Source: Conexibacter sp.
GTDB taxonomy: Bacteria > Actinomycetota > Thermoleophilia > Solirubrobacterales > Solirubrobacteraceae
Reading direction: 5' to 3'
Length of the DNA stretch: 37,575 nt
NCBI GenBank assembly: GCA_025964325.1
Contig: JAOPZA010000170.1
Span: forward strand, 1 to 37,575
In this document: positions 22,024 through 37,575 of the stretch, piece after piece
Layout: every line of letters begins with the position of its first letter
How positions within the stretch are numbered: position 1 is the first letter of the stretch
Made by a program: the position numbers and the translations under genes
Notes under the pieces: model-generated
What the model was told of the DNA's origin: nothing
The model's input: only the letters and a program-made list of their open reading frames with translations
Database searches by the model: none

Positions 22024-22899
22024 GTGCTCGCCAGGCCTTTGAAGTACGCGCGACCCGCCTCCGTAGCCGAGGCGACCGCGTTGCTGCGCAGCCACCCGGG
22101 CGCTCGCCCGCTGGCCGGCGGGCAGAGCATCGTCAACGTGCTGAAGCTGCGCGCGGCCGAGGTCGACGCGCTGATCGACATCAGCCGCCTCGAGGAGCTG
22201 CGGACGATCGCGGCGACGCCGGACGGCGGGCTCGAGCTCGGCGCCGGCGTGCGCTACGTCGAGCTGGCCTCCGCTCCGCTCGTGCGCGAGCGGCTGCCGA
22301 TCGTCGCCGATGTCGCCGACGGCCTCGTCGACGTGCAGGTCCGCAACCGCGGCACGCTCGGCGGCAACATCTGCCTCAACGACCCGACGTCGAACTTCCC
22401 GCCGCTGCTGGTCGCCCTTGGCGCCACGATCCGGATCGCCGGCGCCGGCGCAGAGCGCCGCTCGGTGCCGGCCGGCGACTTCTTCGTCGGCCCCTACCGC
22501 TGCGCGCTCGAGCCCGGCGAGCTGGTCCACAGCGTCGTGCTCGCCCCGCTCGGCGGCGACGAGGGCGTCGGCTACCAGACGCTGCAGCTGGCGCGCGACT
22601 CGTGGGCGCTCGCCCGCGCCGCCGTCTGGCTGCGCCGCGACGGCGACGCGATCGCCGACGCGCGCGTCGTGCTCGGCTGCCTCGGCCCGCGCCCGGCGCG
22701 CCAGGGCGCGATCGAGGCGGCGCTGCTCGGCGGCGGCGGCGGCGAGGCGAGCGTGAGCGCGGCGGTCGCCGCCCCGCTCGAGGGCATCGACGCGGTCGGC
22801 GACTCGCACGCGTCGCCCGAGTACCGCGTCGAGATGGCGCGCGTCTACGCGAAGCGCGCGATCCACCAGGCATTGGCTCAGACGGAGGCTCCGGCATGA
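22024..22899 (+). CDS. FAD-binding subunit of a molybdenum hydroxylase (CoxM/XdhB-like)
   Basis: This 291-aa subunit carries FAD and passes electrons out of the complex. It has the PCMH-type FAD motifs: LAGGQSIVNVLKLR (binding loop), the conserved RNRGTLGGNICLNDPTSNFPP, then a CO-dehydrogenase flavoprotein C-terminal domain from about residue 170. Starts: the GTG at 22024 has a nearby AAGGGA; a TTG five codons later (before KYARPAS) fits the family start equally well. It is the first gene of a five-gene operon; its stop overlaps the 2Fe-2S gene as ATGA. Confidence 0.9.
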   Translation: MLARPLKYARPASVAEATALLRSHPGARPLAGGQSIVNVLKLRAAEVDALIDISRLEELRTIAATPDGGLELGAGVRYVELASAPLVRERLPIVADVADGLVDVQVRNRGTLGGNICLNDPTSNFPPLLVALGATIRIAGAGAERRSVPAGDFFVGPYRCALEPGELVHSVVLAPLGGDEGVGYQTLQLARDSWALARAAVWLRRDGDAIADARVVLGCLGPRPARQGAIEAALLGGGGGEASVSAAVAAPLEGIDAVGDSHASPEYRVEMARVYAKRAIHQALAQTEAPA

Positions 22900-23411
22900 A
22901 CGACCCCGAGACGACGCACCTCGTCGAGGTGCAGATCAACGGCGAGAGATACGAGCGTGCCGTGCAGGCGCGCGAGCTGCTGGTCCACTTCATCCGCGAC
23001 ACGCTCGCGCTGAAGGGCACCCACATCGGCTGCGACACCGGCAACTGCGGCGCCTGCACCGTCCTCGTCGACGGGCAGCCGATGAAGAGCTGCATGATGC
23101 TCGCGGTCCAGGCCGACGGGCTCTCGCTCGAGACGGTCGAGTCGCTCTCGCCCGCCGGCGAGGAGCTGAGCGACCTGCAGAAGGCCTTCAACGACCAGCA
23201 CGCCGTCCAATGCGGTTGGTGCACGCCGGGCATGCTGATGCAGGCGAAGGCACTGCTCGAGCGCGATCCCGACCCCGACGTCGAGACGATCCGCCGCACG
23301 CTGAAGGGCAACATCTGTCGCTGCACCGGCTACGTCAACATCGTCCGCGCGGTGCAGCAGGCGGCCGGCCAGGACGTCAGCGCCGGGATCCAGCAGGAGG
23401 CACGCGCATGA
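22896..23411 (+). CDS. 2Fe-2S subunit of a molybdenum hydroxylase (CoxS/XdhC-domain-like)
   Basis: This 171-aa protein has a plant-type [2Fe-2S] domain, IGCDTGNCGACTVLVDG plus a later Cys (MKSC). Its C-terminal helical [2Fe-2S] domain has CGWCTPGM and NICRCTGY. All eight cluster Cys are present. It carries electrons from the molybdenum centre to FAD. It sits between the FAD and molybdenum subunits with ATGA overlaps on both sides, so the three are made in equal amounts. Confidence 0.93.
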   Translation: MNDPETTHLVEVQINGERYERAVQARELLVHFIRDTLALKGTHIGCDTGNCGACTVLVDGQPMKSCMMLAVQADGLSLETVESLSPAGEELSDLQKAFNDQHAVQCGWCTPGMLMQAKALLERDPDPDVETIRRTLKGNICRCTGYVNIVRAVQQAAGQDVSAGIQQEARA

Positions 23412-25876
23412 GCGTCCAGGACGCCGCCGCACCGACCAAGGCGGCCAGCACGATCGGCACGCCGGTCCGCCGCGTCGAGGACAAGCGGCTGCTGCAGGGC
23501 CAGGGGACCTTCTCCGACGACGTCTGGATGAAGCGGATGGGCTATGTCCACTTCGTCCGCTCGCCCCACGCCCACGCGAGGATCGGCGACATCGACGTCG
23601 CCCGCGCCGAGGCGATGGAGGGCGTCTACGCGACGCTCACGGGCGCCGAGGTCGAGGCGATGACCGAGCCGTTCATGCAGATCGCGCCCGAGCCCGGCTC
23701 GCGCATGGAGGACTACGCCCTCGCGGTCGGCAAGGTCCGCTTCGTCGGCGAGCCGGTCGTCGCGGTGCTGGCCGAGACGCGCGCGCTGGCGCGCGACGCG
23801 GCCGAGGCGGTCGAGGTCGAGTACGAGCTGCTGGAGGCCGTCGTCGACAGCCTCGCGACGCTCTCGCCGACGGCACCGGTGCTGCACGAGACGATCGGCA
23901 AGAACATCGGCTACCAGGACACCTACGCCTGGGGCGACATCGACTGGGCGCTCGAGCACGCCGACCACGTCGTCTCGATCGACAAGCTGCACTTCCACCG
24001 CTTCTCCTCGACACCGCTGGAGTGCAACGCCGCGGTCGTCAACTGGGATCGCGGCACCGACGTGATCGAGGTCCGCTCGAACAACCAGATGCCGCAGTTC
24101 GCGGCGATGTTCATCTCGCCCGCGATCGGCATGCCGACCTCGAAGCTGCACTTCGTCTCGCAGGACATCGGCGGCGCCTTCGGCCTCAAGATCACGAGCT
24201 ATCCGACGATCGCCGCCTGCATGCTGCTCTCCCGCAAGGCGGGCCGGCCGGTCAAGTGGACCGAGTACCGGTCCGAGGCGGTCACCGCCAGCGCGCACGG
24301 CAACGAGCGCACCTTCACCGACATCAAGGTGCCGGTGATGGCCGACGGCACGATCCTCGGCTTCGACGTGAAGGCCTACGACGACGCCGGCGCCTTCATG
24401 CGCTACGAGCCGCTCGGCGGCGTGATCTGGTCGCAGGTCGCACCCGGCTGCTACAGACTCAAGCACCTCCGCGTCGAGTACACGCAGGTGCTGACGAACA
24501 AGTGCCCGTGCGGCCCCAACCGCGGCTACTCGCGCCTGCAGCACCTCTGGATGATCGAGCGGATCGTCGACATCGTCGCGCACGAGCTCGGCTTCGACCC
24601 GGTCGAGCTGCGCAAGAAGAACTACCCGCAGGCCGACGAGTACCCGTACGAGACGCCGAACGGCTGCTTCTACGACTCGGGCGACCTGCCGCGGATGCTC
24701 GACCTCGGGCTCGAGCTAGCCGACTACGACGGCTGGCGCACGCGCCAGGCGGAGCTGAAGGAGAGCGGCGGCGGCAAGCGGATCGGGATCGGGATCGGCT
24801 CGACGCTCGACTCGGGCACCAACAACTTCGGCCAGGCGCGGCTCGTCAACGAGCACCTGCCGTTCTCCGGCAACGGCGAGGCCGCGCACGTCAAGCTCGA
24901 CCTCTACGGCGAGATCGCCGTCAACCTCGGCTCCTCACCGCAGGGCCAGGGCCACGAGACGACGGCGGCGCAGACGGTCGGCGAGATCCTCGGCGTCGCG
25001 CCGACCGACATCCACGTGAAGGCCGGCTACGACACCGCCTCGCACGCCTACGTCGGCTTCTCCGGCACCTACGCCTCGCAGTTCGCCGTCACCGGCCTCG
25101 GCGCGGCGATCGGCGCGGCCGAGAAGCTGCGCGACGAGATCAGGCTCGTCGCGGCGACCGCGCTCGGCGCAACGCCGGACGAGATCGAGCTGGCCGACGG
25201 CGTCGCCGGCGTGCGCGGCGACGAGGAGCGCGCGATCCCGTTCATCGGCATCGCGAACCTCGTCTACACGAACGTGGCGGCCCTGCCGCCGGAGGTCGCC
25301 GACGCCGTCAGCCTCAACTGCCGCTACGTCTACCGGCCGCCGTTCGAGATCCCGGACATCGAGACGAAGACGGGCGAGCTGACGCTCACCTACGCCGCGC
25401 AGATCCACGTCGCGGTCGTCGAGATCGACGAGGAGACCGGGCACACCGAGATCCTCAAGTACGTCGCGATCGACGAGTGCGGGCGGCGCATCAACCCGCA
25501 GATCGTCGAGGGCCAGGTGCACGGCGCGGCCGCGCACGGCATCGGCGCCGCCCTGCACGAGTCGTTCGTCTACGACGAGGAGTCGGGTCAGCTGCTGAGC
25601 GGCAACTTCTACGACTACCACGCGGCCACGGCCGTCGACGTCCCGCTGCTGCTGACGGGCGAGATCGAGTGCCCGTCGCCGCGCTCGCCGAACGGCGCGA
25701 AGGGGATGGGGGAGGGCGGCGGCGCGCCGCTCTCGACGCTCTGCGCGGCCTTCCAGGACGCGCTCGGCGCCGGCGGCGCGGTCGTCACCGATACGCACAA
25801 CCCGTCCGAGCGGGTCTGGCGACTGCTGCGGGAGCGCTCGGACGCGCCGCGCCCAGTGGAGGTGGTGTCGCGATGA
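23408..25876 (+). CDS. molybdopterin-binding large subunit of a xanthine dehydrogenase-family hydroxylase
   Basis: This 822-aa catalytic subunit hydroxylates its substrate with water at a molybdenum-cytosine-dinucleotide-type centre. Key motifs are RRVEDKRLLQGQGTF at the N-terminus, GGAFGLK (255-261) at the molybdenum cofactor, RGYSRLQ in the substrate region, and the catalytic Glu769 in AKGMGEGGGAPL. It lacks the AYRCSFR loop with the active-site Cys of form I CO dehydrogenase, so it is not a CO dehydrogenase despite CoxMSL-like order. The substrate is unknown; members act on purines, pyrimidines, nicotinate, quinolines and aldehydes. No XdhC-type insertion factor is in the window. Confidence 0.9.
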   Translation: MSVQDAAAPTKAASTIGTPVRRVEDKRLLQGQGTFSDDVWMKRMGYVHFVRSPHAHARIGDIDVARAEAMEGVYATLTGAEVEAMTEPFMQIAPEPGSRMEDYALAVGKVRFVGEPVVAVLAETRALARDAAEAVEVEYELLEAVVDSLATLSPTAPVLHETIGKNIGYQDTYAWGDIDWALEHADHVVSIDKLHFHRFSSTPLECNAAVVNWDRGTDVIEVRSNNQMPQFAAMFISPAIGMPTSKLHFVSQDIGGAFGLKITSYPTIAACMLLSRKAGRPVKWTEYRSEAVTASAHGNERTFTDIKVPVMADGTILGFDVKAYDDAGAFMRYEPLGGVIWSQVAPGCYRLKHLRVEYTQVLTNKCPCGPNRGYSRLQHLWMIERIVDIVAHELGFDPVELRKKNYPQADEYPYETPNGCFYDSGDLPRMLDLGLELADYDGWRTRQAELKESGGGKRIGIGIGSTLDSGTNNFGQARLVNEHLPFSGNGEAAHVKLDLYGEIAVNLGSSPQGQGHETTAAQTVGEILGVAPTDIHVKAGYDTASHAYVGFSGTYASQFAVTGLGAAIGAAEKLRDEIRLVAATALGATPDEIELADGVAGVRGDEERAIPFIGIANLVYTNVAALPPEVADAVSLNCRYVYRPPFEIPDIETKTGELTLTYAAQIHVAVVEIDEETGHTEILKYVAIDECGRRINPQIVEGQVHGAAAHGIGAALHESFVYDEESGQLLSGNFYDYHAATAVDVPLLLTGEIECPSPRSPNGAKGMGEGGGAPLSTLCAAFQDALGAGGAVVTDTHNPSERVWRLLRERSDAPRPVEVVSR

Positions 25877-26322
25877 AGCAGATCGAGGGCAGCTACCGCT
25901 CCGGCGTCGGCCCGCAGGTGCTGTGGGCGGCGCTGAGCGATCCCGAGCGCCTCGGCGAGGCGTTGCCGGACGTCGGCCTCGTCGAGGTCCACGACGCCGA
26001 GCGCTTCAGCGCGAGCGTCCGTCCGAGCACGAACCTCGGCGTGACCGCGCTGGCGCTCGAGCTGCGAATCGCCGAGCGGACCGAGGGCGAGCGGGTGCGG
26101 ATCATCGGCGACGGCTCGGCCGGCGAGCATCGCGTCTCGTTCGACGTCGAGCTGCGCCTCGCGGCGAGCGCGGACGGCGGCTCCGACGTCGCGTGGAGCG
26201 CGGAGGTGCAGGCCTTCGGCGGCCTCGGCAGCCTCACGCAGCGGGTGCTGCCGATGCTCCTGCGCGACCAGGTCTCGATCGTGCTCGCGACGGCCGAGCG
26301 CCAGGCGGGAGCGCTCGCATGA
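25873..26322 (+). CDS. CoxG-like SRPBCC family protein
   Basis: This 149-aa protein resembles CoxG. It starts MKQIEGSYRSGVGPQVLWAALSDPERLGEALP, with the helix-grip fold features of SRPBCC proteins, and ends in an amphipathic helix near LLRDQVSIVLATAERQ. CoxG proteins accompany molybdenum hydroxylases and are thought to aid membrane attachment or assembly; some bind quinones. It overlaps the large-subunit stop and the next start as ATGA, so it belongs to the complex's operon. Confidence 0.85.
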   Translation: MKQIEGSYRSGVGPQVLWAALSDPERLGEALPDVGLVEVHDAERFSASVRPSTNLGVTALALELRIAERTEGERVRIIGDGSAGEHRVSFDVELRLAASADGGSDVAWSAEVQAFGGLGSLTQRVLPMLLRDQVSIVLATAERQAGALA

Positions 26323-27443
26323 GCAAGGCGATCCTCGACCGCGCCAGCGGCTTCAAGCTCGGCCTCTTCTCGCCCAACTGCTCCAGCGGGCTCGCCGTCA
26401 CGACGGTGGAGGAGCGCTGGTCGGGCAGCTGGGACGACAACCTCGCGCTCGCCAAGCTGTCGGACGAGGTGGGGCTCGACTTCCTGCTGCCGATCGCCCG
26501 CTGGATCGGCTACGGCGGCACGACGAACTTCCACGAGGGCGTCCTCGATCCCGTCACGTGGGCGGCCGGCCTGCTCGCCAACACCGAGCGGATCGCCGTC
26601 TTCGCGACGATCCACACCGCCTTCAACCACCCGATCGTCGTCGCGAAGCAGATGGCGACGCTCGACCAGATCGGCCACGGCCGCGCCGGCATCAACGTCG
26701 TGGCCGGCTGGAACAAGCCCGAGTACGACACCTTCGGCGTCGAGCTGCCGGAGTCCCACGACGACCGCTACGCGCTCGCGCAGGAGTGGCTCGACCTGGT
26801 GCAGAGAATCTGGTCGACGGAGGGCTCGTTCGACCACCACGGCCGCTTCTTCCACGTCAACCACGTGGAGGGCCTGCCGAAGCCGTTCGAGGGCTCGGTG
26901 CCGGTGCTGAACGCCGGCGCCTCGCCGCAGGGTCGCGACTACGCCGCCCGCAACGCCAACTACCTCTTCACGCCGTTCGCGGACGCCGCCACCGACGGCG
27001 CCGCGACCGTCGCCGACGTGACCGGCGCCGCGCGGGAGCGCTACGCGCGCGAGATCGGGGTGCTGACGCTCGGCTACTCCGTCTGCCGCCCGACGCACGC
27101 CGAGGCCGAGGAGTACCACCGCTGGTACGCGGACGAGAAGGCCGACTGGAACGCCGTCGACAACCTGATGGCGTTGCAGGGGATGCACGCGCAGTCGTTC
27201 TCGAAGGAGATGTTGGCGAGCTTCCGCGGCCGCTTCGCAGCCGGCCACGGGGCGTTCCCGCTCGTCGGCACGCCCGACGAGATCGCCGACGAGATCGAGC
27301 GGATCGCGGCGGCCGGCTTCGCCGGCATGACGCTCGCGTTCGTCGACTACCTCGGCGAGCTGCCCTACTTCGCGCAGGAAGTGATCCCGCGGCTCGAGCG
27401 CAAGGGCCTGCGCGCCCCGCGGAGCGCCGCGGCGGTGGCGTAG
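26319..27443 (+). CDS. RutA-like LLM flavin monooxygenase
   Basis: This 374-aa LLM enzyme shares, from memory, the block pattern of pyrimidine monooxygenase RutA: RWIGYGGTTNFHEGVLDPVTWAAGLLA, then TERIAVFATIHTAF, and GRAGINVVAGWNKPEYDTFG (cited as landmarks). RutA-type enzymes use an FMN-peroxide to open uracil by oxidative amide cleavage; relatives attack other heterocycles and sulfonates. A lactam made by the molybdenum hydroxylase would be a logical substrate. RutA needs a flavin reductase (RutF), which is not in the window. The gene is the last of the operon, joined by ATGA to the CoxG gene. Its 3' end is duplicated (see 27426-27481). Confidence 0.85.
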   Translation: MSKAILDRASGFKLGLFSPNCSSGLAVTTVEERWSGSWDDNLALAKLSDEVGLDFLLPIARWIGYGGTTNFHEGVLDPVTWAAGLLANTERIAVFATIHTAFNHPIVVAKQMATLDQIGHGRAGINVVAGWNKPEYDTFGVELPESHDDRYALAQEWLDLVQRIWSTEGSFDHHGRFFHVNHVEGLPKPFEGSVPVLNAGASPQGRDYAARNANYLFTPFADAATDGAATVADVTGAARERYAREIGVLTLGYSVCRPTHAEAEEYHRWYADEKADWNAVDNLMALQGMHAQSFSKEMLASFRGRFAAGHGAFPLVGTPDEIADEIERIAAAGFAGMTLAFVDYLGELPYFAQEVIPRLERKGLRAPRSAAAVA

Positions 27444-27481: not shown

Positions 27482-27494
27482 ATCTCGCGCCCAG

Positions 27495-27727: not shown

Positions 27728-28465
27728 CTATCTGTGCGCGCCGTCGACGCGCGAGAAGCCGAGGATCTCCTCGACCGTCGGGAGCGTCATCGTCGGGCCG
27801 CCGTTGGTGGGCTCGACGCTCGTGGCGACAAGGTCGACGGAGCTGCGCAGGTGGGAGACGAGCAGCCCGACCGCGACCGCGCCCTCGTCGCGCTCGAGCG
27901 CCTCGAGCATCGCGATGTGCTCCGCCGCGCGCATCCGCACGTGGTCGGGGTGGCGCATCGACTCGACCCGGTAGCGCTCGCTGTTGCGCCACAGCGGCTG
28001 GATGCTGCGCACGAGCCAGTTCGAGCCGGAGGCCTCGTAGAGGGCGAAGTGGAAGCGCTCGTGCGCGTCGCGCGAGGCGATCAGGTCGCCGCGCTCGTCG
28101 GCCTCCTGCTTGTCCTCGAGCGCGGTCCGCGCGCGCTCCGCGTGCTGCGGCTGGACGCGGCCGGCGGCGGTCGCGAGGGCGAGGCCCTCGAGGTGCATGC
28201 GCGTGAAGTAGGTGTCGAACAGGTCCTCGAGCGTGAGCGGGCGGACCCACGCGCCCTTGTGGGCGACGATCTCGACGAGGCCGAGTCCCTGCAGCCGCCG
28301 CAGCGCCTCGCGGATCGGCATCATGCTCATGTCGAGCTGGTCGGCCAGGTCCTGCAGGCGCAGCGGCGCGCCCGGCGGGATCGCGCCCTCCATGATGCCC
28401 TGGAACAGGGCAAGCTCCGCCTCGTCGGCGGCGGTCTTCCTACGTGGTGGATTCAGCATCTTCAT
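27728..28465 (-). CDS. GntR family transcriptional regulator, FCD type
   Basis: This 245-aa regulator has an N-terminal winged HTH (residues about 20-77: LRLQDLADQLDMSMMPIREALRRLQGLGLVEI) and a helical FCD ligand domain. The domain's metal/ligand residues lie in SRDAHERFHFALYEAS and the later HIAMLEAL region. FCD-type GntR proteins usually repress catabolic operons and are released by a carboxylic-acid intermediate. It is the last gene of the minus-strand operon and overlaps the FAH gene by 26 nt. Start: ATG at 28465, or ATG at 28459, which has AGGGG at better spacing. Proposed sites: ATCAAATGT at both outer promoters. Confidence 0.9.
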   Translation of the reverse strand: MKMLNPPRRKTAADEAELALFQGIMEGAIPPGAPLRLQDLADQLDMSMMPIREALRRLQGLGLVEIVAHKGAWVRPLTLEDLFDTYFTRMHLEGLALATAAGRVQPQHAERARTALEDKQEADERGDLIASRDAHERFHFALYEASGSNWLVRSIQPLWRNSERYRVESMRHPDHVRMRAAEHIAMLEALERDEGAVAVGLLVSHLRSSVDLVATSVEPTNGGPTMTLPTVEEILGFSRVDGAHR

Positions 28466-29381
28466 CCCCTGTTCCCGGGACTGTAACTGGCGAGTCGGTG
28501 AGATTCGTCGCCGCCACCCGGTTGCGGAGCTCGCCGAGCCCGGAGACGCGCGTGACGACGAGGTCGCCGTCGGCCAGGAACACCTGCGGATCGCGTGCGT
28601 TGCCGATCCCGCTCGGGGTCCCGGTCAGCAGCACGTCGCCGGCGCGGAGCGTCATGCCGCGGCTCAGCTCCGCGATCAGCTGCTCGAACCTGAAGGCGAC
28701 GAGCGCCGTCGAGGCGTCCTGCAGGACGGTGCCGTTGAGCTCGCACTGGATCTGCAGCGCGTACGGGTCGGCGATCTCGTCGGCGGTCGTGATCCAGGGC
28801 CCGAGCGGCATCGTCTGGTCGATGCTCTTGCCCTTCAGCCACTGGCCGCCGTGCGCGCGCTGGAGGTCGCGCTGGGAGACGTCGTTGGCGATGCAGAAGC
28901 CGAAGACGTGCTCGAAGGCGCGCTCGGCCGGGATCGAGCGCCCGTCGCGGCCGATCACGATCACGACCTCGGCCTCGTAGTCCCATTTCGAGGAGAGCTC
29001 CGGGTCGAAGGCGATGTCGTCGCGCGGGCCGATCACGGTGTCCGGGCCCTTCGTGAAGAACGTCGGGTGCTCCGGGCGCTCTCTCGGGTCCTGCCCCTCG
29101 CGCTTGCCCTGGGACTCCTCGTAGTGGTCCCAGTAGTTCCAACCGGCGCACAGGACGTCGCGGTTGAAGCGCCGCAGCGGCGCGTCGAACTGCGCCGCGT
29201 CGAGCTGCACGCGGGGCGCGTCGGCGACCGCGTCGCGGACGGCCGCGAGCGCCTCGGGGCCGCCGCGGACGACGTCGTCGAGCGAGCCGAGCGCGGCCGG
29301 CGCGAGCGCCAGCGCGCGCTCGTCGTCGACGACCGCGACGAGGCGGCGGGCGCCGTCGAGACGGACGCTGGCGAGCTTCAC
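28440..29381 (-). CDS. fumarylacetoacetate hydrolase (FAH) family protein
   Basis: This 313-aa protein has an N-terminal domain of about 70 residues and the FAH catalytic domain. The domain begins VLCAGWNYWDHYEES; its metal ligands are Glu136 and Glu138 (DYEAEVVIVIG) and Asp167 (CIANDVSQRD). KGKSIDQTMPLGPW and LLTGTPSGIGNAR follow. The family covers acylpyruvate hydrolases, 2-hydroxyhepta-2,4-diene-1,7-dioate isomerases, and hydratases/decarboxylases of meta-cleavage pathways, all acting on 2-oxo/2-hydroxy dienoic acids. The last type fits the neighbours best. GTG start overlaps the RidA stop (GTGA). Confidence 0.88.
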   Translation of the reverse strand: MKLASVRLDGARRLVAVVDDERALALAPAALGSLDDVVRGGPEALAAVRDAVADAPRVQLDAAQFDAPLRRFNRDVLCAGWNYWDHYEESQGKREGQDPRERPEHPTFFTKGPDTVIGPRDDIAFDPELSSKWDYEAEVVIVIGRDGRSIPAERAFEHVFGFCIANDVSQRDLQRAHGGQWLKGKSIDQTMPLGPWITTADEIADPYALQIQCELNGTVLQDASTALVAFRFEQLIAELSRGMTLRAGDVLLTGTPSGIGNARDPQVFLADGDLVVTRVSGLGELRNRVAATNLTDSPVTVPGTGDEDAESTT

Positions 29382-30267: not shown

Positions 30268-30631
30268 CGCCGTTGCCCCGCTGGCTGTTCTCGCCCAGGT
30301 CCTTCAGCTCGACCAGGCGGTTGACGTAGCGCGTCTCGCCCTCGTTCCTGAGGTTGTGGATCTTGCCGGCGTCGCGATAGACGACGCGGCCGACCGTCTC
30401 CTGCATCAGCCGCGACTCGTCGCCGTCGAGGAACTCCATGCGGTTCTCCGCGCCCTCGATCGCGATCACGAGATACGGGTTGTGGTGCAGGTGCCAGGGC
30501 TGCTCCCCGCCGGGCTCGAGCCGCACCTCCCAGACGCGGACGTGCTCGTTCTCGAAGACGACTTCGGTGCCGATGTCTCCGAGCACGACCTCCTCGCCGC
30601 TCGCGTCGGTGACTACGTCGCCTTTGGCCAT
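30257..30631 (-). CDS. small cupin protein, 124 aa
   Basis: A single cupin domain: first motif WHLHHNPYLVIAIEG (His47, His49, perhaps His50) and second motif DAGKIHNLRNEG (His92, Asn96). The Glu usual in the first motif is replaced by Tyr53, so metal binding may be altered. It may be an enzyme or may pair with the second cupin as an unequal heteromer. A strong Shine-Dalgarno (AGGAGG, at 30642-30647 on the complement) lies 10 nt before the ATG; it is one of the few junctions in the operon without overlap (23-nt gap after the monooxygenase). Confidence 0.8.
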   Translation of the reverse strand: MAKGDVVTDASGEEVVLGDIGTEVVFENEHVRVWEVRLEPGGEQPWHLHHNPYLVIAIEGAENRMEFLDGDESRLMQETVGRVVYRDAGKIHNLRNEGETRYVNRLVELKDLGENSQRGNGDGR

Positions 30632-30654: not shown

Positions 30655-32253
30655 TCAGGCCCGCGGGGGCGCCTGGCCGGTGATCTGTTCGTAGAGCGCT
30701 GCGGCCCGGTCGCCCTGCGCGCCGGGGTCGTACTGCTCGATCGCCGCCACGTGCGCGTCCGGGCGCAGCAGGACGAGCGTGTCCGCCTCGACGCCGAAGC
30801 GCCGTCGGACCCGCTCGGCGGGATCGAAGAGGGCCCGGTCGCGCAGTCCGGAGTCGTGCGGCGCGTCCCAGCGGCTGACGGCGAAGTGCCGCAGCGCCGG
30901 GCTGTCCTGCGCCGGGATCGCCGGCCGGCGCCGGGTGTCGGTGAAGTAGAGCGCGACGAAGGCGTCGGCCGCGAGGTCGTGCAGGTGCACGGTCCCGTCG
31001 GGGCCGAAGAGCGGCAGGTCGGGCGCGCGGTCGCCGGTGCGGACGCGGTCGGGCTCGCTGCCGGAGCGGACCATCGACCAGTCGCCGCTGCCGTCGACGT
31101 CGAGGCTGACGCTCAGCAGCGCGCGGGTGAACGCATTGCCCCAGTTGCCGTCGCCCATCGCCGCGACGCCGCCGCTCTGGCGCGACATGTAGGCGCGCGC
31201 CGCCTCCGCCATCTCGCCCGACCCCTGGATCGCGACCGGCGCCTGCTCGCTCTCGTAGCCGTCGAGCAGCGCGGGCGCGGCCCAGCCGCGCAGCACCCAC
31301 GCGAGCCGCCACGGCAGGTTGGAGGCGTCGAGCACGCCGGTGTTGAGGCCGAGCGCCCACATCGGCGTGATCAGGTGGGCGGCGTCGCCCATCAGGAAGA
31401 CGCGCCCCTCGCGCCATCTGTTCGCGACGCGATGGTGGACGGTGTAGACGTTCGAGCCGAGCACCTCGACCTCGCCGACGTCCCCGATGAAGCGCTTCGC
31501 CTTCTCGGCCAGCTCATCGGCGCTCGGCACGTCGCGATCGCCGGCGAGCGGGAAGAGGAAGCGCCAGCAGTGCGGCTGGCGCACGAGGATCATCCACTCC
31601 GACGGGTCGCCGAAGTAGGCCAGGTACGGGTAGTCGCGCGGGTGCTCGACGTCCAGGTCGGCTCTCATGTCGACGAGCGAGTAGCGGTCGGGCAGCGTGT
31701 GGCCCTCGACCGTCACGCCGATCTCGTCGCGCACTCTCGAACGGCCGCCGTCGCAGCCCAGCAGGTAGCGCACGGCGACGGTCTCCGGCCCGCCGGGCCC
31801 GGCGACCTCGACCTCGACGCGGTCCTCGAACTGCGTGAAGCGCTCGACCCGGCGGGAGAGCCGCAGGGCGCCCGGCGCGAGCGCCTCGAGCGTGTCGCGC
31901 AGCACCGGCTCGAGGTCGTTCTGCGGGATGTTGATGACGAACGGGAAGCGCGTGTCCTCGGTCAGCGCGCCGGTCAGCACGCTGCGCGCCGCGCGGTTCG
32001 TCTCGCGGTCGATGTCGCCGATCTCGTCGATCCGCAGCGAGGCGTTCAGCACCGGCGTGAGCGCGCCGTAGCGGTGCAGCACCTCGAGCGTGCGGGTCAG
32101 GATCGTGCCCGCCTTGGTGTCGAGCGAGAGGCGGTCGTCCTCCTCGAAGATCACGACCGGGACGCCGTAGCGCACGAGCCCGAGCGCGGTGATCAGGCCG
32201 ATCGGCCCGGCGCCGGCGATCCCGACCGGCAGCTCCTCGGCGGCGGCGCTCAT
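30655..32253 (-). CDS. FAD-dependent aromatic-ring monooxygenase
   Basis: This 532-aa flavoprotein hydroxylase has three diagnostic motifs: GIAGAGPIGLITALGL for ADP binding, the DG motif YLLGCDGGRSRVR, and the GD motif GRVFLMGDAAHLITPMWALGLNTG. A C-terminal thioredoxin-like domain (about residues 400-532) is as in phenol hydroxylase/MhpA-type enzymes. Such proteins use NAD(P)H and oxygen to hydroxylate activated, often carboxylated or phenolic, aromatic or heteroaromatic rings. It probably prepares the ring for cleavage by a cupin. The start overlaps the SDR stop (ATGA). Confidence 0.88.
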   Translation of the reverse strand: MSAAAEELPVGIAGAGPIGLITALGLVRYGVPVVIFEEDDRLSLDTKAGTILTRTLEVLHRYGALTPVLNASLRIDEIGDIDRETNRAARSVLTGALTEDTRFPFVINIPQNDLEPVLRDTLEALAPGALRLSRRVERFTQFEDRVEVEVAGPGGPETVAVRYLLGCDGGRSRVRDEIGVTVEGHTLPDRYSLVDMRADLDVEHPRDYPYLAYFGDPSEWMILVRQPHCWRFLFPLAGDRDVPSADELAEKAKRFIGDVGEVEVLGSNVYTVHHRVANRWREGRVFLMGDAAHLITPMWALGLNTGVLDASNLPWRLAWVLRGWAAPALLDGYESEQAPVAIQGSGEMAEAARAYMSRQSGGVAAMGDGNWGNAFTRALLSVSLDVDGSGDWSMVRSGSEPDRVRTGDRAPDLPLFGPDGTVHLHDLAADAFVALYFTDTRRRPAIPAQDSPALRHFAVSRWDAPHDSGLRDRALFDPAERVRRRFGVEADTLVLLRPDAHVAAIEQYDPGAQGDRAAALYEQITGQAPPRA

Positions 32254-32996
32254 GCGTCGGCTCCGCGCGCCGTGTCGGTCGCCGAGAAGGCGCGGTCGCG
32301 GCTGAGCGTCGAGCCGGTCATCGAGGCCGCCTCGGAGAGCAGGAACAGCAGCGGGCCGACGACGTCGACGGGGTCGCCGATGCCGGTCGTGCCGGTCCAG
32401 TGGGCGCGCTCGCTGCCGGAGTTCGCGGCACGGAACTGGGGCGTGTCGATGACGCCGGGGAAGAGGACGTTGACGCGCACGCGATCCGCCGCGACCTCGG
32501 CCGCCAGCGACTTCGCGAACGCGATCAGCGCGCCCTTCGAGGCGGCGTAGGCGGACGCCTCTGCGCGCCCCATGTGGGCGAGCCCCGAGGCGAAGACGAC
32601 GATCGAGCCGCTCGCCTGCGCGCGCAGGTGCGGCAGCGCGGCCTGCACGGCCCAGACGACGCCGTCGAGGTTGACCGCGAGCGTGTGGCGCCACTCCTGC
32701 GGGTCCATCTCGGCGATCGGCGTGCGCGGCTGCACGGCGGCGCCGGCGATCAGGCCGTCGACGCGGCCGTGGCGCTCGACGACGGTCGCGACTGCGGCGA
32801 AGACGGCGTCGCGGTCGGCGACGTCGACCTCGTGCTGCTCGATGCCGGCCGCGGCGAGCTCGGCCGAGGGCGCGACGTCGAGCACGACCGGCGTGCCGCC
32901 GGCCTCCGCGTAGGCGCGTGCGGCGGCGGCGCCGATGCCGTTGGCGCCGCCGGTCACGACGAGCACCTCGCCGTCGGCGGTGAAGGTGGCTCTCAT
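32250..32996 (-). CDS. short-chain dehydrogenase/reductase
   Basis: This 248-aa classical SDR has the cofactor motif TGGANGIG, LDV in the second strand (Asp end, favouring NAD), the NLDGVVWAV helix, catalytic Ser in VFASGLAHMG and YAASK with catalytic Tyr and Lys, then LFPGVIDTP. It oxidises an alcohol or dihydrodiol, or reduces a ketone, in the pathway. ATGA junctions on both sides tie it to the flavoprotein and the monooxygenase. Confidence 0.88.
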   Translation of the reverse strand: MRATFTADGEVLVVTGGANGIGAAAARAYAEAGGTPVVLDVAPSAELAAAGIEQHEVDVADRDAVFAAVATVVERHGRVDGLIAGAAVQPRTPIAEMDPQEWRHTLAVNLDGVVWAVQAALPHLRAQASGSIVVFASGLAHMGRAEASAYAASKGALIAFAKSLAAEVAADRVRVNVLFPGVIDTPQFRAANSGSERAHWTGTTGIGDPVDVVGPLLFLLSEAASMTGSTLSRDRAFSATDTARGADA

Positions 32997-34648
32997 GGGG
33001 TCTGCTCCGGGTCGTTCTGGTGCGGGGCGAAGGGGAGGGCCGAGCGGACGGCGGCGGCGGCGCGGCGGCGCGCCGGCGGCGCCAGCAGCGTCTGCGCGAC
33101 GAGGTGGCCCGAGGCACCGCTGAGCCCCGGACCGGGATGGGTCGCGGCGCCGATCTGCCAGAGCCCGTCGACGGGCGTGCGGTGGCTGGCGGCGGCCGGG
33201 ACGGGACGCCACAGGAGCCGCTGGTCGAGGTCGGCGGCGCCGCCGTAGGGGTCGCCGCCGATCGCATTCGGGTTGTGCGCGGTGAGGTCGTCGGGCGTGA
33301 ACGCTCTGAGCCCGAGCACCTGCTCGCGGAGGCCGGGCGCGTGCGTCTCGATCCGCGCGAGGATCCGCTGCGCGTAGGCGTCGGCCAGCTCCCGCGTCCA
33401 GCGCCCGCCGGTCTCGAGCTCGCCGGCGGCGTCGCCGCGCGGGCGGGCCGGCACCTCCTGCAGTTGGATCCAGAGCGTCGCCGCGCCGTCGGGCGCGCGC
33501 GCCGGGTCGAGCACCGACTGCTGGCCGACGACGACCGTCGCCTCGCGCGGGAGCAGGCCGGCCTCCGCCTCGGCGCAGGCGATGCCGGTGCTCGCGGAGC
33601 CCTCGGTCAGGTGCAGCAGCGGCACCTCGGCGAGTCGCGCGTCGGACCACGCCGGCGGCTCCGACAGCGCCACGTGCAGCTGCATCGCGGCGCGGCCGGG
33701 GCGGTAGCGCGCGGCCTGCTCGCACAGCGCCGGCGGGACGACCCCCGCGGGCAGCAGCTCGCGGTAGAGCGCGCCCGGCGCGACCGAGGCGATCACTGCG
33801 CGGCGCGCTCGGAGCGTGCGCGAGGCGGTCGCAACGCCGACCGCGCGGCCGCCCTCGACGAGCACGCGCTCGACCGGCTCGCCGGTCAGAAGCTGCGCGC
33901 CGTACGCGCCCAGCAGCGCGCGGAAGGCGGCGAGGAAGCGCGCCTGGCCGCCCTCGACGATCGGCAGTCCGGCGGCGTGCAGCGTCGCCGCGAACAGCGG
34001 GATCATGACGGCGCCCGAGGCGTGGTCGGGCGAGAGCCCGGAATGCAGCAGCCACGGGACCCAGAGCGCGTCGACCTCGTCGCCGGCGAAGCTGCGCCGG
34101 CACCAGCCGCGACCGCTCGTGAGCGTGTCGCGCAGCCAGGCGTCGAGGCCGGCGCGTCCGCCGTCTCTCGCAAGCCTCGCGACGTGCCGCAGCGGGGCGC
34201 TCGAGTGCAGCTCGCTGCCGAGCAGGCCGCCGATCGACGGCAGCGCCGCGCCGATCCGTCCGAGCACGTCGAGGTAGGCGGCGCGGTCGCCGGCGTCGGC
34301 GAAGCCCTCGACCGTCCGTTCCGGGTCGCGGTGGGCGAGCACCGCGCTGCCGTCGCGGCGGACCGTGCCGGTCACGAGTCCCTCGGCGTTGCGGTACGTC
34401 AGGCCGTGGTCGTGCAGCTCCCCGCCGAGCTCGGCGTACGCGCCGCCGGTGACGAACTCCGGGTGCCAGGAGGAGAAGCTGTCGTGGACGTAGCCGGGCG
34501 CGGTCAGCTCGCCGGAGGCGATGAAGCCGCCCGGCTCGGCATTGCGCTCGACGAGCGCGACGGACCAGCCGCCGCGCGCGAGCTCGGCGGCCGCGACGAG
34601 GCCGTTGATGCCGGAGCCGATCACGATCGCGTCGAAGCTGTCGGTCAT
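32993..34648 (-). CDS. phytoene-desaturase-like NAD(P)/FAD-dependent oxidoreductase
   Basis: This 551-aa flavoprotein starts with the dinucleotide motif VIGSGINGLVAAAELARGGWSV and ends with a conserved FAD-closing motif, VDGLWQIGAATHPGPGLSGASG. The layout is that of the CrtI/phytoene desaturase-like and PYROXD2 group, many of which are not carotenoid enzymes. No carotenoid genes are nearby, so it probably oxidises a pathway intermediate. A paralogue starts near the right end of the window (36797-37575), sharing ARAPDG, PARP.GD.AGEL and the NPN..GGD region. Confidence 0.85.
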   Translation of the reverse strand: MTDSFDAIVIGSGINGLVAAAELARGGWSVALVERNAEPGGFIASGELTAPGYVHDSFSSWHPEFVTGGAYAELGGELHDHGLTYRNAEGLVTGTVRRDGSAVLAHRDPERTVEGFADAGDRAAYLDVLGRIGAALPSIGGLLGSELHSSAPLRHVARLARDGGRAGLDAWLRDTLTSGRGWCRRSFAGDEVDALWVPWLLHSGLSPDHASGAVMIPLFAATLHAAGLPIVEGGQARFLAAFRALLGAYGAQLLTGEPVERVLVEGGRAVGVATASRTLRARRAVIASVAPGALYRELLPAGVVPPALCEQAARYRPGRAAMQLHVALSEPPAWSDARLAEVPLLHLTEGSASTGIACAEAEAGLLPREATVVVGQQSVLDPARAPDGAATLWIQLQEVPARPRGDAAGELETGGRWTRELADAYAQRILARIETHAPGLREQVLGLRAFTPDDLTAHNPNAIGGDPYGGAADLDQRLLWRPVPAAASHRTPVDGLWQIGAATHPGPGLSGASGHLVAQTLLAPPARRRAAAAVRSALPFAPHQNDPEQTP

Positions 34649-35712
34649 GTCTGCACCGTTTCCGGCTGACCGAGTTGCACGCCCAGTGCCTCCGCCGTCT
34701 CGCGCAGTCTGCGCAGCGAGCTGTCGTCGAGTGCGACGCCGCCCTCGGCGCCGGCCGCGTGGCGCTCGGCCTCGAGCTGCCCCGGCAGCAGCACGCGCTC
34801 GACGCCGGGCGCGGTGGGGGAGGCGGCGACCTGCGCGGCCAGCTCGCCGACGCGCGCGAGGAACGCGTCGCGGTCGCCGAACGCCGCCGGATCGATCGCG
34901 ATGAAGAGATGGGCGCAGTCGTTCGGCGTCGCCGTGTCGGCGTAGAGGCCGTTGACGCCGGCGCCGAAGGCGCCGCCCGAGAGCACGCCGGTCAGCACGT
35001 CGACCATGAAGGCGAGCCCGTAGCCCTTCGGCCCGGCGGCCGGCAGCAGCAGCCCTCTGATCGCGGCCTCGGGGTCCGTCGTCGGCGCGCCGTCGGCGTC
35101 GGTGGCCCAGGTCGGCGGGATCGCGCGGCCCTCGGCGGCGGCGAGGCGCACCTTCCCGAGCGCGGCCTCCGAGAGCGCCATGTCGAGCACGATCGGGTCA
35201 TCCGACTCGCCCGCCGTCGGCACGCCGATCGCGAGCGGGTTGTTGCCGACGACGGCGCGCGCGCCGCCCGGGGCCGGCATCAGCGGGCGTGTGTTGGCGG
35301 CGGCGATCCCGACGCAGCCGGCGGCGGCCGCCGCCTGCACGAAGCGGAAGGCGCCGCCGAAATGGAAGGCGTGGCGCACGACGACGACGCCGACGCCGAA
35401 GGAGCGCGCCTTCTCGACGGCAAGCGCCATCGCCTGGTCGCCGGTGAGGATGCCGAGCGCGTTGCCGCCGTCGAGCACCGCGATCGGGCCCGCGTCGACC
35501 ACGGGCTCGGCGGCGACCGCGCGGCTGACCGAGCCGGCACGGAGGCGCTCGACGTACATCGGCACGAGCATCGCCCCGTGTGACGGGATCCCGCGCAGAT
35601 CGGCGTCGACGAGGCCCTCCGCGACCGCAGCCGCGCTCGCCGGCGGCAGCCCGGCGGCGACGAAGACGCGTTCGACGGCATCGAGCAGCCAAGAAGCATG
35701 GATCGGCGTCAT
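34645..35712 (-). CDS. LDH2/malate dehydrogenase (YlbC/ComC-like) family oxidoreductase
   Basis: This 355-aa enzyme belongs to the NAD(P)-dependent LDH2/MDH2 family. Family marks: RGIPSHGAMLVPMYVERL, VVVVRHAFHFGGAFRFV, VGNNPLAIGVPT, DMALSEAALGKV and AAGPKGYGLAFMVDVLTGVLSGG. Members reduce or oxidise 2-oxo/2-hydroxy acids (malate, lactate, ureidoglycolate) or cyclic imines such as piperideine-2-carboxylate. In this operon it probably handles a 2-oxo acid product. It is the first gene of the minus-strand operon; the leader is about 60-80 nt, and no strong Shine-Dalgarno is visible. Confidence 0.88.
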   Translation of the reverse strand: MTPIHASWLLDAVERVFVAAGLPPASAAAVAEGLVDADLRGIPSHGAMLVPMYVERLRAGSVSRAVAAEPVVDAGPIAVLDGGNALGILTGDQAMALAVEKARSFGVGVVVVRHAFHFGGAFRFVQAAAAAGCVGIAAANTRPLMPAPGGARAVVGNNPLAIGVPTAGESDDPIVLDMALSEAALGKVRLAAAEGRAIPPTWATDADGAPTTDPEAAIRGLLLPAAGPKGYGLAFMVDVLTGVLSGGAFGAGVNGLYADTATPNDCAHLFIAIDPAAFGDRDAFLARVGELAAQVAASPTAPGVERVLLPGQLEAERHAAGAEGGVALDDSSLRRLRETAEALGVQLGQPETVQT

Positions 35713-35772
35713 GAGGGTCTCGATTCGGCGTCGCGGAGGCAGGGAACACGTCGGCGGCGGCTCGGTGCCACT

Positions 35773-35800: not shown

Positions 35801-35874
35801 TAGGCGCGCCAGTGCGCGGGCCTCCATCGGGACCTTTTCCCGCCCGTCTCGTCATCCCGCAGAAAGGCCGTCGC

Positions 35875-36837
35875 ATGTCCCGCATCGACTTCCACGTGCA
35901 CCTCGCGCCGCAGCTGACCGACGACGGGCTCGTCGCGTTCGCACCCGGCGTCACCCGCGGCGACGACGGGAAGCTCGTGATCGACGGCCACGCAGCCGGT
36001 CCGCCCTCGCTCTACGCTCCCGCCAAGCTGACCGCCTGGCTCGACGAGCGCGCGCTCGACGAGGCGGTCGTCTCGCCACCGCCGCCGTTCTTCCGCCAGG
36101 GCCTCGAGCCGGCGCAGGCGTCCGCCTGGGTGCGCGCGCTCAACGACGGCACGCTCGCCGCCGTCGCCGGCGCGCCGCGGCTGCTGCCGCTCGCCTACCT
36201 CCCGCTCGAGCATCCCGAGCTGGCGCTCGCCGAGTACGAGCGGCTGCGTCCCGAGCAGCGCTGGGCCGGCGTCTGCGCCTCCGCCGGGGGCGGCTCCCGC
36301 TCGCTCGCCGACGCGGCGCTCGCCCCCCTCTGGCAGGCGCTCGACGCCGACGCGCGGCTGCTGCTGCTGCACCCCGGCAGCTCGCCCGACGCGCGGTTGG
36401 CGGAGTTCTACCTCCACAACCTGCTCGGCAACCCGGTCGAGACGGCGATCGCTGCCGCCCAGCTGGTCTTCGGCGACGTGCTCCCGCGCCACCCGCGCAT
36501 GCGCGTGCTGCTGGTCCACTGCGGCGGCTGCGTGCCCGATCTCGTGCCGCGCTGGGAGCAGGGCGTCGCGACCTCCCGCCCGGGGCTCGCGCCGCTCACC
36601 GAGTCGCCCACGCAGGCGGTCCGGCGGCTCTGGGTCGACTGCCTCGTGCACGACCCCGGCGCCGTCGACCGTGGCGTCGAGGTCTTCGGCGCCGAGCATC
36701 TCGTGCTCGGCAGCGACTGGCCCTTCCCGATGGGGACGAGCGATCCGGCGGCGCTGGTCGCGCATCGCGGGGAGGCGTTCGCGGAGGCCGTCGCGGTCAC
36801 GAACGCCGCCGTCCTGCTCGGCCGCCGAGGCCGCTGA
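35875..36837 (+). CDS. ACMSD-like amidohydrolase (decarboxylase/hydratase family)
   Basis: This 320-aa protein has the amidohydrolase-2 fold with metal ligands His7 and His9 (FHVHL), His166 (LLLLHPG), His215 (LLVHCGG) and Asp281 (LGSDWPFPMG). From memory the region from LLGNPVETAIAAA through DCLVHDP to GSDWPFPMG matches 2-amino-3-carboxymuconate-6-semialdehyde decarboxylase (ACMSD) closely. Relatives decarboxylate resorcylates or hydrate oxalomesaconate. A weak Shine-Dalgarno (AGAAAGG) precedes the ATG. Its last 41 nt overlap, tail to tail, the next minus-strand gene. Confidence 0.87.
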   Translation: MSRIDFHVHLAPQLTDDGLVAFAPGVTRGDDGKLVIDGHAAGPPSLYAPAKLTAWLDERALDEAVVSPPPPFFRQGLEPAQASAWVRALNDGTLAAVAGAPRLLPLAYLPLEHPELALAEYERLRPEQRWAGVCASAGGGSRSLADAALAPLWQALDADARLLLLHPGSSPDARLAEFYLHNLLGNPVETAIAAAQLVFGDVLPRHPRMRVLLVHCGGCVPDLVPRWEQGVATSRPGLAPLTESPTQAVRRLWVDCLVHDPGAVDRGVEVFGAEHLVLGSDWPFPMGTSDPAALVAHRGEAFAEAVAVTNAAVLLGRRGR

Positions 36838-37575
36838 GGTCCCTGAGCGACGAGGGGAGCGCCGGCCGGCGCGGACCGCGCGCCTCGGCCAGCACCGCGC
36901 TCGCCGTGTGGTCGCCCGGCAGCGCGTTGATCCCCGCGCCCGGCCAGGTCGCCGTGCCGGTCAGCCACAGGCCGGGGACGGCGGTGCGCGTGCGCGGCCG
37001 CAGCACGAAGCTCTGCGCGAGGTGCATCGAGCCGCCGAGCGAGTCGCCGCCGACGAGGTTCGGGTTCGCGCGCTCGAGGTCGGCCGGCGTCAGCACCGCC
37101 CGGCCGCGGATCCGCGCGCGGAGGCCTGGGGCGTAGGACTCGAGCTTGTCGAGCACGCGGTCGGCGTAGCGCTCGCCGAGCGCGTCCCAGGAGCCGTCGC
37201 CGACGTCGAGCTCGCCGGCCTCGTCGCCGCTCGGGCGGGCCGGCAGCGCGCGCACCTGCACCCACAGCACGTGCCTGCCGTCCGGCGCACGCGTCGGATC
37301 GACCGACGAGGTCTGGCCGACGACGAGCAGCGGCTCGGCCGGCAGGCGACCGGTCATCGCTGCCGTGTACGTGCGGGCGAGGTCGTCGAGGTACGGCGCG
37401 ACGTGCACGTAGGCGAAGTCGGCGAGGTCGGCGCCGGCGCGCCACGGCACCGGCCCTTCGAGCGCGAGGTGGACCATCATCGTGCCCGGTCCGTTGCGGA
37501 AGCCGCGCGCCTGGGCGCGCAGCTGGGCCGGGGCCGCCGCCTCGCCGCCGCCGGCGCGCTGGTGACCGTCATCGA
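36797..37575 (-). CDS. phytoene-desaturase-like flavoprotein, 5' part cut by the window end
   Basis: The frame is open from the window edge and continues upstream, so about 258 C-terminal residues are visible. ATG codons at 37480-37475 are internal: the sequence before them, GFRNGPGTMMVHLAL, is typical of the middle of this family. The FAD-closing motif is VPGLWLTGTATWPGAGINALPGD. It is a paralogue of the flavoprotein at 32993-34648 and probably acts in the same or a related pathway. The stop lies inside the amidohydrolase coding sequence. Confidence 0.8.
   Translation of the reverse strand, partial: DDGHQRAGGGEAAAPAQLRAQARGFRNGPGTMMVHLALEGPVPWRAGADLADFAYVHVAPYLDDLARTYTAAMTGRLPAEPLLVVGQTSSVDPTRAPDGRHVLWVQVRALPARPSGDEAGELDVGDGSWDALGERYADRVLDKLESYAPGLRARIRGRAVLTPADLERANPNLVGGDSLGGSMHLAQSFVLRPRTRTAVPGLWLTGTATWPGAGINALPGDHTASAVLAEARGPRRPALPSSLRDLSGLGGRAGRRRS

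What the first reader, a model, noticed from the sequence alone, without database searches (positions are those of the whole stretch)
22024..37575. Uncharacterised two-operon oxidative pathway for an N-heterocycle or amino-aromatic compound
Seen: a plus-strand operon (Mo hydroxylase, CoxG, RutA-like LLM) converges on a nine-gene minus-strand operon (LDH2, flavoprotein, SDR, FAD hydroxylase, two cupins, RidA-like, FAH, GntR), with a divergent ACMSD-like gene. Known: Mo hydroxylases turn N-heterocycles into lactams; RutA opens a lactam-containing ring; the 2-nitrobenzoate/3-hydroxyanthranilate route uses a cupin dioxygenase, ACMSD, a RidA-superfamily deaminase and FAH-type enzymes. Inference: this cluster joins both chemistries in a route not known to me. 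Missing from the window: flavin reductase, Mo-insertion chaperone, transporter, aldehyde dehydrogenase.
Basis: partly seen in the sequence, partly recalled or inferred. Interest (0 to 1): 0.75.

Follow-up and report, generated by a model that had tools for sequence, protein, structure and literature searches.

The report
Gene cluster degrading an indole-derived aromatic
A soil bacterium carries a 15-gene oxidative pathway whose nine-gene core recurs in widely separated bacteria beside genes that turn tryptophan or the plant hormone auxin into anthranilate, so it is probably an undescribed route for breaking down anthranilate-type compounds, fed here by a molybdenum enzyme that attacks a nitrogen-containing ring.

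Summary
The gene content is confirmed: a five-gene plus-strand operon (coxM-coxS-coxL-coxG-LLM) converges on a nine-gene minus-strand operon, with a divergent ACMSD-like gene.

The two operons belong together. In Georgenia the same genes form one co-directional run (L029). All 12 Mo large subunits near the core form one clade with a shared active-site loop.

The core (LDH2, SDR, FMO, cupins, RidA, FAH, ACMSD-like amidohydrolase) recurs in Actinomycetota and Proteobacteria. Its neighbours point to its input. In Paraburkholderia it lies inside an auxin-degradation (iad) locus. In Crossiella it is one operon with PrnB (tryptophan-dioxygenase superfamily) and a kynureninase-like enzyme. Elsewhere it sits beside StyA-like oxygenase modules. 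The known end product shared by the auxin and kynurenine routes is anthranilate.

Best reading: the core is an undescribed anthranilate-level ring-cleavage pathway, fed in this genome by a Mo hydroxylase and a flavin-N5-type LLM acting on an indole- or quinoline-like ring.

It does not match the textbook 3-hydroxyanthranilate route: no 3-HAO was found, one ACMSD substrate arginine is missing, there is no aldehyde dehydrogenase. One cupin resembles a triazine-forming enzyme. Substrate and step order are unproven; nothing was tested at the bench.

The parts
22024..22899 (+). coxM, FAD subunit of Mo hydroxylase
   Evidence: PF00941 E 1.4e-47, PF03450
22896..23411 (+). coxS, 2x[2Fe-2S] subunit
   Evidence: PF01799 7e-30, PF00111
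23408..25876 (+). coxL, Mo-cofactor large subunit with active-site loop NRGYSR (about residue 369) and KGMGEGGG (about 768); same clade as all other core-associated coxL
   Evidence: PF20256/PF02738/PF01315; nearest solved: CoxL 386 bits, quinoline 2-oxidoreductase 362 bits; loop and tree
25873..26322 (+). coxG-like
   Evidence: PF06240 2.8e-10
26319..27443 (+). LLM flavin monooxygenase, SfnG/RutA-like, RutA O2-pocket residues kept
   Evidence: PF00296 1.8e-56
27728..28465 (-). GntR/FCD regulator
   Evidence: PF07729, PF00392
28440..29381 (-). FAH-family hydrolase/hydratase/decarboxylase
   Evidence: PF01557 2.7e-68
29378..29773 (-). RidA-family imine/enamine deaminase, about 60-90% identical across loci
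   Evidence: PF01042 6e-25
29773..30267 (-). cupB, ChrR/DAD/acetylacetone-dioxygenase-like cupin with three conserved His
   Evidence: PF12973 1.1e-13; alignment; fold search
30257..30631 (-). cupA, small three-His cupin; nearest fold AzcA
30655..32253 (-). FMO, group A FAD aromatic hydroxylase with C-terminal Rng_hyd_C region
   Evidence: PF01494 4.4e-65; PnpA 148 bits best solved
32250..32996 (-). SDR dehydrogenase
   Evidence: PF00106 8e-48
32993..34648 (-). FadOx, CrtO/CrtI-like FAD oxidoreductase (accessory; present in part of the loci)
34645..35712 (-). LDH2-family NAD(P)H oxidoreductase
   Evidence: PF02615 1.8e-111
35875..36837 (+). AH2, ACMSD-like metal-dependent decarboxylase
   Evidence: PF04909; family profile v ACMSD 227 bits; residues
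36797..37573 (-). second CrtO-like FAD oxidoreductase, cut by the contig end
   Evidence: relative L013 carries a fuller copy

Best explanation
It is a two-stage oxidative catabolic system. Stage 2 (the conserved core: FMO, cupA or an extradiol dioxygenase, cupB, ACMSD-like AH2, SDR, LDH2, RidA, FAH) degrades an ortho-amino aromatic acid at the level of anthranilate. The inferred steps are: ring hydroxylation by the FMO; ring cleavage by a metal dioxygenase (cupA here, a VOC extradiol enzyme in Burkholderiales); decarboxylation of the cleavage product by AH2; redox adjustment by SDR and LDH2; removal of nitrogen as ammonia by RidA; C-C cleavage or hydration by FAH to central metabolites. Stage 1 is an interchangeable funnel. 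In this genome it is a Mo hydroxylase (coxMSLG) that hydroxylates an N-heterocycle next to nitrogen, an LLM flavin monooxygenase that oxidises or opens the lactam, and a CrtO-like flavoprotein. The most likely substrate is a benzo-fused N-heterocycle (indole or quinoline type). Shown here: gene content, operon structure, one-run linkage of the two stages, clade specificity of the Mo subunit, and neighbours of the core. Inferred: the anthranilate node, every individual reaction, and the starting substrate.
For: Linkage: in Georgenia L029 coxM-coxS-coxL-coxG-AH2-LLM-FadOx-SDR-FMO-(ABC transporter)-LDH2-cupA-cupB-RidA-FAH is one co-directional run. 10 of 80 core loci carry coxMSL/coxMS within 10 kb. 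All 12 core-associated coxL share RGYSR/RGFSR, those reaching the C-terminus share GMGEGGG, and they form one 100/100 clade; other Mo hydroxylases of this genome that were compared lack the loop, apart from the C23 paralogue. XdhC (c51) sits beside the core in four loci. Anthranilate node: (a) in Paraburkholderia L083/L085 the core lies inside an iad-like locus whose RHD alpha scores 668-673 bits to solved Rieske chains that I identify as IadD of the auxin pathway (PMC10374108), with IadC/F/G/H-like genes; iad turns auxin into anthranilic acid (PMC9613470, PMC12633357). (b) In Crossiella L066 PrnB-MocR-AH2-LDH2-SDR-FMO-cupA-cupB-RidA-FAH-KynU-like is one run with a divergent amino-acid permease; PrnB, KynU-like and permease also flank the core in L023 and L036. 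PrnB occurs in 1 of 296 Actinomycetota genomes, so about 7e-4 such neighbours would be expected in 80 loci (assuming 20 kb of an 8 Mb genome each). (c) L047 has IadI-like cyclase (55%), IorA (65%) and a salicylyl/anthraniloyl-CoA monooxygenase-like gene. (d) StyA-like + SDR modules (some with flavin reductase) with cox genes resemble the iif route of indole to anthranilate (PMC6221969). Chemistry: the AH2 profile is nearest ACMSD, with metal and catalytic residues and one substrate Arg kept. cupA and the VOC dioxygenase c29 never occur together: 39 loci v 8, none with both.
Against: No known anthranilate-degradation enzyme is a direct match. AH2 lacks the ACMSD R47/R51 equivalent. cupB shows no 3-HAO match, and cupA folds like the triazine-forming AzcA. 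There is no aldehyde dehydrogenase or aldolase in the cluster. L083 lacks the IadI step, so iad there may stop at dioxindole and not anthranilate. The L047 locus also has an anthraniloyl-CoA-type enzyme, which would compete for anthranilate. Most core loci (NMT1-type ABC loci) carry no indole-related neighbour. Two loci (L060, L090) have AtzD/TrzD and amidase genes nearby. This genome itself has no TDO or kynureninase match and no anthraniloyl-CoA enzyme over cut-off, so its own upstream substrate is not indicated directly. The order of reactions is inferred, not tested.
Confidence: 0.45

Rival explanations
1. The core acts on a still bicyclic or otherwise intact N-heterocycle (dioxindole, isatin, hydroxyquinoline): FMO and dioxygenase open the benzene ring first and RidA/FAH process the rest, without a free anthranilate stage.
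For: L083 lacks IadI, so its iad branch may stop at the lactam. Mo hydroxylase and LLM fit lactam chemistry. Carbocyclic cleavage of indole is reported without genes (PMC6221969).
Against: KynU-like lyase in one run with the core in L066 implies a kynurenine-to-anthranilate-like step. An ACMSD-like decarboxylase needs a carboxylated cleavage product.
Confidence: 0.22
2. The core degrades an azaheterocycle of the purine/pyrimidine/triazine kind: FMO oxidises it, cupA rearranges it like AzcA, AH2 decarboxylates the triazine-like acid, and LDH2/RidA/amidases finish.
For: cupA model v AzcA 9u8n: 37% identity, rmsd 0.7 A, TMt 0.95. AtzD/TrzD and amidase beside or near the core in L060 and L090. LDH2 scores to ureidoglycolate dehydrogenase. 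LLM is RutA-like.
Against: AzcA is one solved member of a broad small-cupin family; 2fqp and 3lag of unknown function are nearly as close. iad and PrnB/KynU neighbours have nothing to do with purines. cupA is replaced by an extradiol dioxygenase in Burkholderiales, which suits a catechol or aminophenol.
Confidence: 0.15
3. The core handles a nitrogen-free aromatic acid; RidA acts as tautomerase or general protection, and the two window operons are neighbours by chance of assembly.
For: RHD/benzoate-like oxygenases near several cores. Extradiol plus decarboxylase logic resembles the protocatechuate 2,3-cleavage route (from memory).
Against: RidA is about 60-90% conserved and usually coupled with LDH2 or cupB and FAH. 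Amide hydrolases and amino-acid/indole modules recur. Operon linkage in Georgenia.
Confidence: 0.12

Closest known systems
3-hydroxyanthranilate route (nba of 2-nitrobenzoate, kyn of Burkholderia)
   Same: FAD hydroxylase, cupin, ACMSD-family decarboxylase, RidA-family deaminase, FAH-family enzyme in one cluster
   Different: no 3-HAO-like cupin, ACMSD R47 equivalent lost, SDR and LDH2 in place of an aldehyde dehydrogenase, extra ChrR-type cupin, coupled to Mo hydroxylase and LLM
iad auxin-degradation locus (Variovorax)
   Same: iad-like genes are contiguous with the core in Paraburkholderia; ends in anthranilate
   Different: none of the iad oxygenase genes is in the window; the passages of the iad papers read here end at anthranilic acid and do not describe the core
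iif/ind indole cluster (StyA-like IifC, IifD, SDR IifB)
   Same: StyA-like oxygenase, flavin reductase and SDR modules sit beside the core in several actinomycetes
   Different: the window has coxMSLG and LLM instead
Rut pyrimidine pathway
   Same: LLM keeps the RutA pocket; RidA/RutC fold
   Different: RutA and RutC models far below cut-off, no RutB/D/E/F set in the window
Quinoline 2-oxidoreductase / aerobic CO dehydrogenase
   Same: three-subunit Mo hydroxylase, QorL and CoxL nearest solved
   Different: active-site loop NRGYSR, not the CODH CSFR loop; all NCBIfam equivalogs far below cut-off
AzcA triazine-forming cupin (9u8n)
   Same: fold and 37% identity to cupA
   Different: function known to me only from the entry title; cluster otherwise lacks a nucleoside context

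Membership tests
3-hydroxyanthranilate pathway | 3-hydroxyanthranilate 3,4-dioxygenase | tested here: not met
   cupB profile hits ChrR, KdgF, DAD at E<=0.1, no 3-HAO; cupA fold search top AzcA, no 3-HAO in top 50
3-hydroxyanthranilate pathway | ACMSD with metal ligands, catalytic His and both substrate Arg | tested here: not met
   H7,H9,H166,H215,D281 and R226 invariant, but the R47/R51 position is not Arg (window GHAAGP)
3-hydroxyanthranilate pathway | 2-aminomuconate deaminase (RidA family) | tested here: inconclusive
   RidA family met, catalytic Arg/Glu visible in sequence; subfamily not resolved
3-hydroxyanthranilate pathway | aminomuconate-semialdehyde dehydrogenase (ALDH) in cluster | tested here: not met
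   none among the called genes; the contig ends at the cluster's edge
3-hydroxyanthranilate pathway | enzymatic turnover of anthranilate/3-HAA | not testable with these tools
   needs bench work
Rut pathway | RutA equivalog | tested here: not met
   153 bits v cut-off 498, though pocket residues kept
Rut pathway | RutC equivalog | tested here: not met
   68 v 169 bits
Aerobic CO dehydrogenase | active-site loop CSFR / equivalog score | tested here: not met
   loop NRGYSR; 440 v 991 bits
iad locus | IadCDE oxygenase | tested here: not met
   absent from the window; present next to the core in L083/L085
Conserved core described here | LDH2, SDR, FMO, cupB, RidA, FAH, AH2 co-localised | tested here: met
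   at least 5 of 7 in 65 of 80 loci; all 7 in the window

The most novel reading that the evidence does not exclude
A so far undescribed, widely distributed ring-cleavage pathway for anthranilate-level compounds (FMO, cupin or extradiol dioxygenase, ACMSD-like decarboxylase, RidA, LDH2), fed by interchangeable indole-type funnels. One funnel, seen in this window, uses a Mo hydroxylase with an RGYSR loop plus a RutA-type LLM to open an N-heterocycle.
Probability: 0.4. Interest if true: 0.78.

Novelty: new variant of a known kind. Interest (0 to 1): 0.62.

Why it matters
Anthranilate is the hub between tryptophan, auxin, indole and quinoline breakdown, and a 2018 review (PMC6221969) states that the genes for part of its metabolism are unknown. 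A conserved core seen beside auxin, tryptophan and N-heterocycle funnels in two phyla would give a testable answer, explain how soil actinomycetes and rhizobia mineralise indolic compounds, and give genome annotators a substrate for clusters now labelled only by family names.

Tried and rejected
CO dehydrogenase: wrong active-site loop and scores far below cut-off. Rut operon: RutA and RutC below cut-off, no RutB/D/E/F set in the window.

Picolinate/nicotinate-type route: considered because Mo hydroxylase + FMO + AH2 occur together in M. loti, but no 2,5-dihydroxypyridine dioxygenase was seen in the window; not tested further.

Co-occurrence statistics of core and iad in the family of Variovorax: only 3 of 251 genomes had cupB matches, and the two new ones carry a diverged cluster, so no statistic was possible.

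Literature searches for the gene set by family names found nothing relevant. No paper on AzcA was found.

The promoter/terminator scan of the convergent gap found nothing.
Full report
**Observation.** The window carries the genes reported. Codon-usage gene calling gave a plus-strand run coxM-coxS-coxL-coxG-LLM with four 4-bp overlaps. It converges across 284 bp on the minus-strand run LDH2-FadOx-SDR-FMO-cupA-cupB-RidA-FAH-GntR (junctions -26 to +23 bp), and an ACMSD-like gene diverges from LDH2. Pfam matches all of these proteins. No NCBIfam model reaches its curated cut-off, so none is a known equivalog. A second CrtO-like flavoprotein is cut by the contig end; the near relative L013 (80-91% identity) has the same gene order up to GntR, where its contig ends.

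**The core is conserved.** A search with the FMO found 80 loci in GTDB genomes. At least five of the seven genes LDH2, SDR, FMO, cupB, RidA, FAH, AH2 lie together in 65 of them, in Actinomycetota (Streptosporangium, Streptomyces, Micromonospora, Kribbella, Georgenia, Kutzneria) and Proteobacteria (Variovorax, Paraburkholderia, Rhodoplanes), and on an Agrobacterium plasmid. RidA is the best conserved, about 60-90% identical. Many loci also carry an ABC transporter with an NMT1/THI5-type binding protein. The small cupin cupA is present in 39 of the 65 and absent from eight that carry a VOC extradiol dioxygenase (c29) with the expected His, His and Glu ligands; none has both. Eighteen loci, nearly all Kribbella, have neither. 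Few evolutionary events underlie these counts, so the exclusion is suggestive only.

**The two operons belong together.** In Georgenia L029 the Mo hydroxylase, coxG, AH2, LLM, FadOx, SDR, FMO, an ABC transporter, LDH2, cupA, cupB, RidA and FAH form one co-directional run; L033 and L043 carry the same genes in part or rearranged, with LLM at 65-67% identity. Ten of 80 core loci carry coxMSL/coxMS within 10 kb, and M. loti pML2037 carries two coxL beside FMO and AH2. All 12 core-associated coxL share an RG(Y/F)SR loop, and those that reach the C-terminus share GMGEGGG. They form one 100/100 clade, unlike three other Mo hydroxylases of this genome whose loops were compared. The nearest solved proteins are CoxL and quinoline 2-oxidoreductase, both distant. 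The genome also has a closer coxL paralogue with the same loop on contig C23 (66%), away from the core, next to hydantoinase/oxoprolinase genes. The core does not need the funnel: the same-genus genome G212 and L116 have it without Mo hydroxylase, LLM or FadOx nearby.

**What feeds the core.** Four kinds of neighbour point the same way. (1) In Paraburkholderia L083 and L085 the core lies between the halves of an iad-like locus, all on one strand. The RHD alpha subunit scores 668-673 bits to chains 7yls/8h2t and 9o71, which I identify as IadD from the iad papers and the entry match, not from a stated accession; acyl-CoA ligase, thiolase, SDR and reductase match the Variovorax iad genes at about 50-55%. 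iad converts auxin into anthranilic acid (PMC9613470, PMC12633357). (2) In Crossiella L066 one run reads PrnB-MocR-AH2-LDH2-SDR-FMO-cupA-cupB-RidA-FAH-KynU-like, with a divergent amino-acid permease; PrnB, KynU-like and permease also flank the core in Kribbella sandramycini L023 and Kutzneria L036. PrnB belongs to the tryptophan-dioxygenase superfamily (established knowledge) and occurs in 1 of 296 Actinomycetota genomes. (3) L047 has an IadI-like cyclase, IorA and an anthraniloyl-CoA/salicylyl-CoA monooxygenase-like protein beside the core. (4) Seven actinomycete loci have StyA-like oxygenase and SDR, four of them a flavin reductase too, with coxM/coxS or coxMSL, which resembles the iif route of indole to anthranilate (PMC6221969). 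The known common end product of the auxin (iad), kynurenine and indole (iif) routes is anthranilate.

**Mechanism, shown and inferred.** Shown: gene content, linkage, clade membership, residue conservation. Inferred: FMO hydroxylates the o-amino acid, cupA (or c29) opens the ring, AH2 decarboxylates, SDR/LDH2 adjust oxidation state, RidA releases ammonia, FAH finishes. The AH2 family profile matches ACMSD at 227 bits, well above other decarboxylases. It keeps metal ligands, catalytic His and the R235 equivalent, but the R47/R51 position is not Arg. ACMS itself is therefore doubtful as its substrate. The LLM keeps all five RutA pocket residues that I recall from the RutA work (L65, T105, N134, W139, E143), which fits flavin-N5-peroxide chemistry on a lactam. 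In other Thermoleophilia, two LLM orthologues whose surroundings were read sit beside a flavin reductase and without the core. Missing chaperone and reductase functions exist elsewhere in this genome. It has no TDO or kynureninase match, and no anthraniloyl-CoA enzyme over cut-off, so its own input is probably the N-heterocycle and not tryptophan.

**What does not fit.** AlphaFold of cupA (pLDDT 92) is closest to AzcA, an entry described as forming a triazine, at 37% identity and 0.7 A. AtzD/TrzD and amidase genes lie near the core in L060 and L090. This keeps an azaheterocycle reading open. cupB resembles acetylacetone and dihydroxyacetophenone dioxygenases only in fold. L083 has no IadI, so its iad branch may hand over a lactam and not anthranilate.

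**Limits.** Gene calls outside annotated records come from a home-made caller. Loci extend at most 10 kb each side. The 80 loci were found by peptide patterns of one protein and are not a random sample. Locus counts include near relatives, so they are not independent events.

Noticed in passing
window 15994-21869 (+): An operon of 6-phosphogluconate dehydrogenase, 6-phosphogluconolactonase, glucose-6-phosphate dehydrogenase, transaldolase and glucose-6-phosphate isomerase (names from reading the translations) directly precedes coxM.
   Followed up: no
L009 (G000:C23): A paralogous coxMSLG (coxL 66%) sits with hydantoinase/oxoprolinase B (PF02538) and A-like genes, thiolase, DUF35-type protein, SDR and an ABC transporter: probably another lactam-degrading cluster.
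   Followed up: partly
L119, L120: Comamonadaceae carry a diverged cluster of cupB (52%), RidA (34%), FAH (36%), VOC dioxygenase (26%) and an RraA-like protein; L120 adds Mo hydroxylase and flavin reductase.
   Followed up: partly
L020, L022, L039, L045, L054, L058, L076: FMO and cupA alone, in most cases next to the NMT1-type ABC transporter, without the rest of the core: the FMO-cupA pair may be a functional unit of its own.
   Followed up: no
L029, L030, L032, L035, L038, L043, L048: In several cox/FadOx-type loci cupA is enlarged (219-229 aa) or matched twice side by side, suggesting a duplicated bicupin.
   Followed up: no
L099, L102, L103, L093: A recurrent Rieske oxygenase + isochorismatase-type hydrolase + SDR + branched-chain-type ABC module, 39-43% to IadD, next to the core in Variovorax and Agrobacterium; its substrate is unknown.
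   Followed up: partly
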